From positions 1,984,001-2,048,000 of the forward strand of contig NZ_CP134159.1 in NCBI RefSeq assembly GCF_032197885.1: DNA of 64,000 bases, in the 5' to 3' direction. Below, piece after piece: positions 39,118 to 42,095 of the stretch. The stretch comes from Levilactobacillus namurensis. GTDB taxonomy: Bacteria > Bacillota > Bacilli > Lactobacillales > Lactobacillaceae. Within the stretch, counting starts at the first letter, position 1. Every line of letters starts with the position of its first letter. The notes below the pieces were generated by a model. That model saw nothing but the letters and a program-made list of their open reading frames with translations. It searched no databases and was not told the origin of the DNA. The position numbers were made by a program, and so were the translations under genes.

Positions 39118-39261
39118 TAAGCCCATTTAAGTCCTTTGGCAAGTGAATCCACCTAACGATTTCTTAATTTCGAACCGACCTAGACCGCTGACCGTCTCCT
39201 CCCAGAAGCAAGTCTATTCTAGCAGGCATCCGCCCAATTCTGAGAGCATTAAAAAAATACT

Positions 39262-39466
39262 AAGCTTAGAGGCATAGAAGTTACCCGACGGGGTGCTCCT
39301 ATGCCTCTATTACTTTATAGTGGTAGTGAAGACAGGCCGTGGGCGCTTTGGGTCCTTGAGACCGTAATAAAAAATGGCCGCTTCACTGGTTTTAGTCAAT
39401 TTGATCAAAGTATTTGGGCTCTCGAAGCCGTGTTTTGAAAACGAGATTACTAAAACTGACGTGAAG
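39262..39466 (+). ncRNA. Predicted bridge RNA of IS110 copy 1
   Basis: Three consecutive hairpins. HP1: 10-bp stem 39268-39277 with 39299-39308. HP2 (target-like loop): outer stem AGTGAAG/CTTCACT (39325-39331, 39381-39387), GGCC/GGCC, inner stem GGTC/GACC, loop strands 39339-39350 and 39364-39375. HP3 (donor-like loop): outer stem GTTTTAGT/ACTAAAAC (39389-39396, 39449-39456), inner GGCT/AGCC, loop strands 39397-39416 and 39430-39448. AGTATTT (39409-39415) is complementary to the left end AAATACT, and AAAACGAG (39438-39445) nearly equals the right end AAAACGTAG. This is the bridge-RNA layout known from IS621; expression is inferred. Confidence 0.75.
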
Positions 39467-39485
39467 ACTTCAGAAAGACAGGTAT

Positions 39486-40712
39486 ATGATTATGCGAACA
39501 ATTATTGGAATCGATGTCAGTAAAAACAAAGCTAACGTTGCGGTGGCGACGGATTTAATCGTCGCCAAAGAACTGACCGTCCCTCTAGATGCACTGGGAT
39601 TTAATGAACTGAAACACGTCGTGCTTCAGTTCGGCGGAAAAGCGGAAATCGTCTTTGAAGCGACTGGTGTTTACTCCCGGCGCTTAGAGTATTTCCTTCA
39701 ACAAGAAAATTTGAATTACCATATTTTAAATCCCCTGGCGGCTAAGAATCGCATCGCCACTGGTACGCGAATGAGAAAAAACGATCAACGTGATGCGCGC
39801 CGATTGGCGATTACCGAGTTTACCGAACAGTTAGAGCCCTATCTTCTAGCTTACAAACAGGATCCCATCTATCGTGAATTAACGGATATGAACCGTTATT
39901 ACGACCAACTCAATGAGGATAAGAAACGGGCCCGCAATCGAGCTCATCGTGTCTTACAGCTTGTATTTGCGTCATTTGGGGCCTCCAAGGGTGGCTTTAA
40001 CTTCGATACAAAGCTGGCTTGGAAGATCCTAACACTCTTCCCGCATGCACAAATCGTTCGTGAAATTGGCGACCTTAACGCGTTAGAAGCACGAATATCA
40101 GCAGCACATTTCAAAGGGATGAACGCTAGGCGTATTCACGATGCCGCACGAAAGTTATGGAAACTGGCCGCTCAGAATGGTGACGCCGTACCCGTTACTT
40201 CGGATAACACGCGGCAAATGAAAGCTTTGGCGGAACAAGTTCTCACCCTAGAAGCAGCGCAGGACCAGCAGGTCGTGCGCATGATGGCCTTAGGTAAATC
40301 CTTGTCAGAGTTTACGCTTCTTCAAACAATCCCTGGTATTGGTGGCAGTACCGCCATTCGGCTAATTAGTGAATTAGGTGATATCCGACGGTTCAATACC
40401 CGTCAGCAATTGAACAGCTATGTTGGCCTGGACACAACGGAAGTTGACTCCGGTGACCATCAATCCGCTCGCCATATCACCAAACACGGTAATCCCCATG
40501 CACGCCGAATCTTGTATTGGACGGTCGTTCTTATGCTTAATCCTAAGATGGGCGACAATCATATTCGCGATGCATACGAAAAAAGACGAGAAGCTTCTTC
40601 TTCAAAGAAGAAACTCATCGTCCGTCAAATGGATCGTCTTATTAAAACAATCCTATACCTGATAAAAACGAATCAACCTTACTCCTATGAGCTGAGCCCT
40701 CAATCGAAGTAA
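39486..40712 (+). CDS. IS110-family DEDD transposase/recombinase, copy 1
   Basis: 408 residues. N-terminal RuvC-like DEDD domain (TIIGIDVSKNKANVAVATD, EATGVYSRRLEYFL, KNDQRDARRLA) and C-terminal transposase-20 domain with the helix-hairpin-helix-like TIPGIGGSTAIRLISELGDI, the region carrying the catalytic Ser in this family, and SGDHQSARHITKHGNPHARRIL. It would act as an RNA-guided recombinase on a circular intermediate. Intact and identical to the second copy, so recently mobile. Confidence 0.95.
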   Translation: MIMRTIIGIDVSKNKANVAVATDLIVAKELTVPLDALGFNELKHVVLQFGGKAEIVFEATGVYSRRLEYFLQQENLNYHILNPLAAKNRIATGTRMRKNDQRDARRLAITEFTEQLEPYLLAYKQDPIYRELTDMNRYYDQLNEDKKRARNRAHRVLQLVFASFGASKGGFNFDTKLAWKILTLFPHAQIVREIGDLNALEARISAAHFKGMNARRIHDAARKLWKLAAQNGDAVPVTSDNTRQMKALAEQVLTLEAAQDQQVVRMMALGKSLSEFTLLQTIPGIGGSTAIRLISELGDIRRFNTRQQLNSYVGLDTTEVDSGDHQSARHITKHGNPHARRILYWTVVLMLNPKMGDNHIRDAYEKRREASSSKKKLIVRQMDRLIKTILYLIKTNQPYSYELSPQSK

Positions 40713-40906
40713 CATTCATTATAGTTTATAATACCAGCCTTGAAAAAAATTTGATACCTCCAAGGCTTATTTAGCTGGCTATAAATCACTAAAATAATAG
40801 CAATAGGGCCTAGGCTCCGGAACGAAGAACATCGTTCCGGAACCTAGACCCTAAATTTCTCATCATAAAACATTGATTTAACAACATCTTTATTGACAAA
40901 ACGTAG

Positions 40907-40936
40907 AAAAAGCTCACCGCCAACAACGGTGAGCTT
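40907..40936 (-). terminator. tRNA-Arg terminator whose T-tract is supplied by the IS end
   Basis: Stem AAGCTCACCG/CGGTGAGCTT (40910-40919 with 40927-40936). The A-run on its left (T-run of the terminator) is now the right end of the IS. Confidence 0.85.
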
Positions 40937-40942
40937 ACTAAG

Positions 40943-41014
40943 TGCGCCCGGAGGGAATCGAACCCCCATTTCAAGAACCGGAATCTTACGTGCGATCCAT
41001 TACACTACGGGCGC
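40943..41014 (-). tRNA. tRNA-Arg(CCG), copy 1
   Basis: 72 nt on the minus strand: acceptor GCGCCCG/CGGGCGC plus discriminator A, D-stem GTGT/GCAC, anticodon stem TAAGA/TCTTG with loop TTCCGGT (anticodon CCG), T-arm GGGGG-TTCGATT-CCCTC. CCA is not encoded. Promoter TTGTAT-17-TATAGT upstream. Confidence 0.95.
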
Positions 41015-41984: not shown

Positions 41985-42017
41985 AAAAAAAAGCTCACCG
42001 CCAACAACGGTAAGCTT
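41985..42017 (-). terminator. Terminator of tRNA-Arg copy 2
   Basis: Same hairpin as at 40910-40936 with one mismatch and an A-run of eight on its left (native, uninterrupted T-tract). Confidence 0.85.
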
Positions 42018-42023
42018 ACTGAG

Positions 42024-42095
42024 TGCGCCCGGAGGGAATCGAACCCCCATTTCAAGAACCGGAATCTTACGTGCGATCCATTACACTACGGGCGC
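42024..42095 (-). tRNA. tRNA-Arg(CCG), copy 2
   Basis: Identical to the tRNA at 40943-41014, including the terminator region, with an independent promoter (TTGAAA-17-TATAGT). The flanking conservation shows a segmental duplication around the ECF gene. Confidence 0.95.

What the first reader, a model, noticed from the sequence alone, without database searches (positions are those of the whole stretch)
39250..39466. IS110 element with a readable bridge RNA: donor loop matches both of its own ends
Upstream of the transposase are a 5' hairpin and two hairpins with large internal loops, the architecture established for IS621-type bridge RNAs. In the second loop, AGTATTT (39409-39415) is exactly complementary to the left end AAATACT (39255-39261), while the opposite strand AAAACGAG (39438-39445) matches the right end AAAACGTAG (40898-40906) with one missing base. 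So the donor-binding loop can be assigned from sequence alone. The split of 5' and 3' strand roles is consistent with the target loop.
Basis: partly seen in the sequence, partly recalled or inferred. Interest (0 to 1): 0.85.

Follow-up and report, generated by a model that had tools for sequence, protein, structure and literature searches.

The report
RNA-guided jumping gene targeting terminators
This is a small mobile DNA element whose own guide RNA recognises both the element's ends and its landing sites; unlike the studied model its guides are in reversed order, and many of its landing sites are the stop signals at the ends of genes.

Summary
Window 39251-40911 is an IS110-family element, present as 6 near-identical full copies plus a rearranged seventh in its genome. 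Upstream of the transposase lies a conserved, covarying bridge-RNA-like structure with two internal loops. The 5' strand of the second loop (AGUAUUU) tracks the left end: 28 of 33 aligned elements match 6 of 6, far above row shuffles, and 4 of 4 held-out ends agree. The claimed 3'-strand match to the right end is present but not tracked; GU-NNN-GAAA with GTAGAAA fits better.

The literature reports this order for IS1111 elements, whose RNA is mostly downstream. (2) Insertion is into A/T-runs that are often U-tracts of intrinsic terminators: 29 of 58 right flanks versus 28 of 125 background runs; empty sites confirm the insertion point. RNA expression and recombination are untested.

The parts
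39251..40911 (+). whole IS110-family element (ends lie inside A-runs, so exact to within the runs 39251-39257 and 40907-40911)
   Evidence: 6 full near-identical copies with different flanks; empty sites in sibling genomes
39486..40712 (+). IS110 RNA-guided transposase/recombinase, 408 aa; motifs GIDVSK (aa 8-13), FEATG (57-61), KNDQRDAR (98-105) and serine motif VDSGDH (320-325)
   Evidence: Pfam PF01548 E 3e-22 and PF02371 E 2e-21; NCBIfam NF033542 178 bits, cut-off 140; aligns with ISCro4 9t56 and IS621 8wt6; motif positions
39267..39309 (+). bridge RNA 5' stem-loop
   Evidence: helix 1: 13 of 13 counted pairs with double changes, 85.5% of cells paired
39326..39386 (+). target-binding loop: outer stem 39326-39340 with 39375-39386, apical stem-loop 39351-39363
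   Evidence: helices 2-4, 92-95% of cells paired; fold
39341..39349 (+). 5' target guide GGGCGCUUU; [quoted passage not shown]
   Evidence: own 7.01 against permuted 5.78 of 9, z 8.1, 49 sites, 27 groups; a fixed-register version failed
39366..39374 (+). 3' target guide AAUAAAAAA (about 7 nt plus handshake positions); same sequence as the top strand of the LEFT flank, so pairs with its bottom strand
   Evidence: z 11.2, z 8.6; 5 of 6 own copies match 8 of 8, this copy 7 of 8
39390..39455 (+). donor-binding loop: outer stem 39390-39396 with 39449-39455, apical stem-loop 39417-39429
   Evidence: fold; apical helix 5, 95.8% of cells paired. The outer stem was not counted: its 3' side does not align across the families
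39409..39415 (+). 5' donor guide AGUAUUU; [quoted passage not shown]
   Evidence: covariation score 1.43, shuffle maximum 0.52; 28 of 33 match 6 of 6; held-out 4 of 4 left ends
39432..39440 (+). proposed 3' donor guide GU-NNN-GAAA; [quoted passage not shown]
   Evidence: motif in 30 of 33 elements. Right ends were found with a pattern that already required TAG[AG]AA, so their constancy is partly by selection. Of four right ends with a changed base, two have a matching RNA change (L028, L067) and two do not (L051, L027). Register taken from the IS621 structure. Inferred
39261..39266 (+). TAAGCT, candidate -10 of a promoter formed only at the circular RE-LE junction
   Evidence: read from sequence; CTAA served as the anchor when the left ends were cut out, so its constancy is partly by selection. 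Inferred
40893..40898 (+). TTGACA, candidate -35 of the junction promoter, 17-18 bp from 39261 in the circle
   Evidence: TTGAC in the 28 right ends found of 33, but TTGAC was part of the search pattern. Inferred
40903..40911 (+). right end GTAGAAAAA
40912..40934 (-). stem of the putative intrinsic terminator of tRNA-Arg(CCG) (40942-41014, minus strand); its T-tract is the insertion site
   Evidence: 10-bp stem abutting the run; tRNA; homologous site without the element in G018

Best explanation
An IS110-family insertion sequence that excises as a circle and inserts by bridge-RNA-guided recombination. The RNA is encoded upstream of the recombinase, probably transcribed from a promoter rebuilt at the RE-LE junction (inferred). 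Its first loop reads the target and its second reads the element's own ends. In each loop the 5' guide pairs with the top strand to the right of the core (right flank; left end) and the 3' guide with the bottom strand to the left of the core (left flank; right end): the mirror image of IS621, equal to an IS621-type reaction with gene plus RNA flipped relative to the ends. Recombination occurs within an A/T homopolymer shared by target and donor. In this element and many relatives the 5' target guide encodes 'GC-rich arm then U-run' and the 3' guide an A-run with a variable tail, so insertions often fall into U-tracts of intrinsic terminators. The right end brings its own T-tract, so the stem keeps a following run of Ts. 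Shown computationally: structure, tracking of the left end and of both flanks, polarity, insertion point, terminator enrichment. Inferred: the 3' donor guide, transcription, RNP formation, recombination chemistry, preserved termination.
For: Copies and ends. Empty sites without duplication, with A counts that add up (for L071/L072 of G030, target A6 plus circle A4 gives 4 + 6; for L002, target A6 in G018 plus circle A7 gives 7 + 6). RNA structure. Left end / 5' donor guide: held-out. Target guides and polarity: z 8.1 and 8.6 for reversed order against 0.3 and 0.4 for IS621 order. IS621 control, 4 copies: 5' guides resemble the left flank and the right end. Terminators: 29 of 58 right flanks with a stem of 6 bp or more against 28 of 125 A5+ runs of the window, p 2.1e-4; window clade 8 of 14, p 0.009; left-flank control 12 of 52.
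Against: 29 of 58 sites, and 6 of 14 in the window clade, are not terminators by the strict test, and one relative (L147/L148) looks by eye to have one specific target site. With a looser energy criterion (-8 kcal/mol, gap up to 3) the enrichment is weaker: 30 of 58 against 39 of 125, p 0.006. A fixed-register test of the 5' target guide failed (z 0.7 and 0.3); only sliding placement works. The 3' donor guide rests on nearly invariant bases, selected in part by my search pattern, plus two double changes against two uncompensated changes. Some right-end diagonals elsewhere in the RNA also exceed shuffles (0.68-0.86), which shows that relatedness alone can pass that test at this level. Circle A count of the window element is 6 or 7 depending on the sibling site used. 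No expression or transposition data.
Confidence: 0.88

Rival explanations
1. Canonical IS621 polarity: the 5' guides read left flank and right end, the 3' guides read right flank and left end (for example GUGUUUU with AAAATAC through one G-T wobble), and the reader's matches are coincidence.
For: IS621 and ISEc21, studied IS110-type elements with an upstream RNA, have this order. The GUGUUUU wobble pairing exists in the window.
Against: Under this order guides do not track flanks (z 0.3 and 0.4); the left end is tracked by the 5' strand, not the 3' strand, of the donor loop.
Confidence: 0.03
2. The terminator association is only a by-product of the A-run requirement, since long A-runs in these genomes are often terminators; the GC part of the 5' target guide plays no role in finding them.
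For: 28 of 125 A5+ runs in the window already pass the stem test; 29 of 58 insertions lack such a stem; one relative seems to target one specific site.
Against: Terminators are enriched over A5+ runs (29 of 58, p 2.1e-4) on the right flank only (left-flank control 12 of 52); the 5' guide tracks the right flank (z 8.1). The background is one 64-kb window, while the sites come from many genomes.
Confidence: 0.25
3. The upstream region is a conserved structured leader that regulates the transposase; end complementarity serves end recognition by protein or excision control, not RNA guidance.
For: The RNA lies directly upstream of the gene; no expression data here.
Against: Both strands of the first loop track external flanking DNA of each insertion, which a leader would not.
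Confidence: 0.04

Closest known systems
IS621 bridge RNA system (Durrant 2024, PMC11208160: sections 5 and 12 and passages read; Hiraizumi 2024, PMC11208158: passages read)
   Same: DEDD recombinase with serine domain, RNA in the upstream end, 5' stem-loop plus target loop then donor loop, guides split over two strands, probably a gapped 3' donor guide and a junction promoter, scarless insertion
   Different: Guide order reversed in both loops; recombinase 408 aa against 326 (CDS); A/T-run at the crossover instead of a CT core; terminator U-tracts instead of REP elements
IS1111-type seekRNA elements (Siddiquee 2024, PMC11187229: abstract, sections 6, 12, 13 and passages read)
   Same: Order of top- and bottom-strand guides (top-strand complement first), taking 'top' as the strand that carries the gene
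   Different: In nearly all IS1111 elements the RNA lies downstream of the gene, subterminal inverted repeats are long, and the protein is 330-350 aa. Here the RNA is upstream, the longest exact terminal inverted match is 4 bp, and the protein is 408 aa
ISEc21 (same paper)
   Same: IS110-type, upstream RNA, circle junction promoter
   Different: Its top-strand match lies 3' of the bottom-strand match, the opposite of this element

Membership tests
IS110 family | DEDD RuvC domain PF01548 plus PF02371 with conserved serine | tested here: met
IS110 family | scarless insertion without target duplication at a core shared by donor and target | tested here: met
   homologous sites without the element; exact core hidden in an A/T-run
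IS110 family | circular intermediate | not testable with these tools
   junction sequence inferred only
Bridge-RNA IS110 group (IS621-type) | structured RNA in the left end with target loop then donor loop | tested here: met
   structure; loop assignment
[quoted passage not shown]
   IS621 control
Bridge-RNA IS110 group (IS621-type) | RNA expressed and bound by the recombinase | not testable with these tools
   no expression data
IS1111 group | top-strand complement 5' of bottom-strand complement in the RNA | tested here: met
   against PMC11187229
IS1111 group | guide RNA region downstream of the gene | tested here: not met
   guides found upstream, 39341-39440. The paper notes a few IS1111 members with an upstream region
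IS1111 group | subterminal inverted repeat of 7-17 bp | tested here: not met
   longest exact inverted match between the outer 50 nt of the two ends is 4 bp; imperfect repeats not scored
IS1111 group | phylogenetic placement of the transposase | not tested
   no ISfinder reference set at hand

The most novel reading that the evidence does not exclude
A clade of bridge-RNA elements in Bacillota (Lactobacillaceae, with members in Streptococcus and Bacillus) with a third architecture, upstream RNA and inverted guide polarity. In many members the target loop encodes a generic intrinsic terminator (3' arm plus U-tract), so the element is RNA-guided to transcription terminators and rebuilds the T-tract on insertion: a self-made safe harbour.
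Probability: 0.6. Interest if true: 0.8.

Novelty: new variant of a known kind. Interest (0 to 1): 0.64.

Why it matters
It suggests that guide polarity and RNA location, which differ together between the studied IS110 and IS1111 elements, can be uncoupled. That constrains how bridge recombinases evolved and how guides should be read in new orthologues: applying IS621 rules here would misassign the guides. It also supplies natural target/guide pairs with A/T cores, and a way for a mobile element to use RNA guidance to land at gene ends without breaking genes.

Tried and rejected
Variable 5 nt of the right end (TTGAC-NNNNN-GTAG): no credible guide partner; the RE x NCR diagonals that exceed shuffles (0.68-0.86) fall at the donor-loop outer stem and near the ribosome-binding site and are read as relatedness. 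Fixed-register test of the 5' target guide: failed, repeated with sliding placement. Looser terminator criterion: weaker. Covariation of handshake positions: looked at by eye, mixed, not claimed. Rfam at gathering thresholds: no bridge-RNA hit, only two tRNAs. Alignment A1 mixed strands because '-' loci of the genome search are not turned; discarded, replaced by A2. One search crashed after printing the guides. Literature: (open PMC papers only); in their listings and in the papers opened I saw no report of IS110 elements aimed at terminators, or of this guide order with an upstream RNA; subscription papers, supplements, figures and ISfinder were not searched. Rows dropped: five of 33 elements without a right end by the pattern (L010, L043, L023, L053, L027), L078-L080 (anchor not found) and L091 (guide of another length); searches used 27 groups, leaving out L043, L023, L053, L010, L027 (no right end) and L049 (contig ends after the run), L147 has no left end on the stretch fetched. 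In one search the left-end hexamers were matched by script, the target guides by eye.

Full report
What is there. The window lies in a 2.78-Mb genome (G000, unnamed; named close relatives of the recombinase are from Lactiplantibacillus and Levilactobacillus). Window 39251-40911 is a complete IS110-family element. A 408-aa recombinase at 39486-40712 carries the DEDD and serine domains and aligns weakly with the solved ISCro4 and IS621 proteins. The same genome holds six near-identical full copies in different places, a seventh (L007) with two segments of its right end swapped, one copy in two pieces (L008, L009), and several remnants. Relatives at E 1e-60 or better occur in 40 of 397 genomes of the family searched.

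Observation. The upstream region folds into a 5' hairpin and two long hairpins with internal loops (-72.3 kcal/mol, z -4.5). On 24 aligned elements RNAalifold predicts 31 pairs, 23 of them with changes on both sides. Counted on that structure, 90.2% of cells pair and the covariation score is 0.560, against 0.241 on average in shuffles and at most 0.134 when the 3' partners are slid. The donor-loop outer stem is not in that count because its 3' side does not align across families.

Donor loop. I aligned the upstream regions of 33 elements and scanned the left end (LE) and right end (RE) against their well-filled columns in both orientations with 2000 row shuffles. For the LE the clear winner is complementarity with the 5' strand of the second loop (1.43; shuffle maximum 0.52). 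Examples: LE ATACT with AGUAU in the window, CAGACT with AGUCUG, CATTCT with AGAAUG, CTTACT with AGUAAG, CGGACT with AGUCCG. 28 of 33 match at 6 of 6 positions, 4 at 5 of 6, and L088 at 4 of 6. Of five further elements fetched afterwards, the four with a left end (two Streptococcus, Bacillus velezensis, Pediococcus inopinatus) obey the rule. A direct test allowing one gap gives own 5.11 against permuted 4.87 (p 0.075), the full 8-nt match occurring only in the window element and L038.

The IS621 structure has a gapped 3' donor guide (2 nt paired, 2 flipped out, 1 wobble, 4 paired; PMC11208158, passages). The same register here gives GU-NNN-GAAA against GTAGAAA. That motif is in 30 of 33 elements. 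The right ends were collected with a pattern that required TAG[AG]AA, so their constancy (28 of 28 with a G before it) is partly built in. Looking again without that requirement, four right ends differ by a base. In L028 (GTAGGAA) the RNA has GGAA, and in L067 (GCAGAAA) it has GC in place of GU: both are compensated. In L051 (CTAGAAA) and L027 (CTAGAA) the RNA does not follow. L043 has no recognisable end. This is suggestive, not proof.

Target loop and polarity. The 3' strand of the first loop has the same letters as the left flank of each insertion, for instance AAUAAAAA, AACUAAAA, AAGCAAAA, AGUAGAAA, GAGGUAAA beside the same letters in the flanks; over 51 sites in 32 groups the mean is 6.78 of 8 against 5.03 when guides are reassigned (maximum 5.57). 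[quoted passage not shown] A fixed-register version of that test did not work (z 0.7 and 0.3), so the exact register of the 5' guide is not settled. Testing both orders side by side on 49 sites in 27 groups: reversed order z 8.1 and 8.6; IS621-like order z 0.3 and 0.4. As a control I took four IS621 copies from E. coli plasmid records: there the 5' guides are ATCGGGCCT, like the left flank (ATCAGGCC in three copies, ATCGGGTC in one), and ACAGTATC, the right end of all four. So both loops here run in mirror image to IS621. Siddiquee et al. (PMC11187229; abstract, sections 6, 12, 13 and passages read) report this order for the IS1111-type elements they tested, whose RNA region is downstream, and the IS621-like order for IS110-type ISEc21, whose RNA region is upstream. 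The present clade has the upstream location with the IS1111 order. Whether members of the long-recombinase IS110 subgroup were already known to do this I could not check.

Insertion point. A sibling genome (G018) has the homologous site without the element for four own copies, and other genomes of the genus, G003 and G025 among them, for two copies of a relative. Clean examples are CAAT-AAAAAA-GCAGACAT for L002 and AACT-AAAAAA-GCAG for L071. No bases are duplicated beyond the shared A-run. Run lengths vary between siblings (A6 or A7 at the L002 and L071 sites, A7 at the L006 site), so the circle of this element holds 6 or 7 As between GTAG and TACT; the relative holds 4 by two sites. The relative fits the 14-nt IS621 geometry exactly (AGTCTGT-TT-TCTAC; AGGCTTT-TT-TAGTT, read on the bottom strand); the window element fits with 6 As and is one over with 7.

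Terminators. The right flank is often the stem of an intrinsic terminator whose T-tract is the A-run. In the window this is the putative terminator of tRNA-Arg(CCG). By a strict test (6 or more contiguous pairs ending within 1 nt of the run) 29 of 58 distinct right flanks qualify, against 28 of 125 A5+ runs in the window (p 2.1e-4) and 12.7% of shuffled flanks. The window's own clade has 8 of 14 (p 0.009), the other sites 21 of 44, and left flanks 12 of 52, like background. A looser energy test is weaker (30 of 58 against 39 of 125, p 0.006). The background is the 64-kb window only, while the sites come from many genomes. One relative (L147/L148) seems by eye to have one specific target site. 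So: terminator U-tracts are a preferred target of this and many related elements, not of all. A survey of insertion sequences reports IS110 among the families over-represented between convergent genes (PMC9208149, passages), which would fit. Because the right end supplies its own A5 run, the stem keeps a T-tract after insertion; that termination survives is inference.

Promoter. TTGAC in the right end and TAANNT in the left end would lie 17-18 bp apart in the circle, a junction promoter of the kind described for IS621 and ISEc21. Read from sequence, not tested.

Verdict. New here are the reversed guide order with an upstream RNA, a corrected (still inferred) 3' donor guide, and the terminator preference.

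Noticed in passing
window 41985-42095: A second tRNA-Arg(CCG) gene with nearly the same terminator and an A8 run, unoccupied: a paralogous empty target in the same window.
   Followed up: partly
L007 2974-3170: The seventh full-length copy carries two right-end segments (positions about 1522-1611 and 1612-1674 of the query) in swapped order; its right flank is again terminator-like.
   Followed up: partly
L018 from 1501: About 110 bp (by eye) with a left-end 5' hairpin joined to a degenerate right end and no gene: possibly a non-autonomous miniature derivative.
   Followed up: no
window 40806-40851: Long near-perfect hairpin in the right end; relatives have a different but equally paired hairpin there (GGGCATTGG.../...CCAATGCCC in L039 and L088). 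Role unknown; perhaps blocks read-through.
   Followed up: no
L008/L009 (G000:C1:483011-485998): One copy split into two pieces about 1.3 kb apart on the same strand, apparently interrupted by other DNA.
   Followed up: no
L147, L148, L022: Relatives with 3' target guide CCUUAAAA equal to the left flank and, in L147/L148, 5' target guide AAGAAGUUU; L147's right flank matches that 5' guide 9 of 9 by eye.
   Followed up: partly
G000 whole genome: 62 places match AATAAAAARS, a loose form of the target (control pattern 40), so cognate-like sites are far from exhausted.
   Followed up: no
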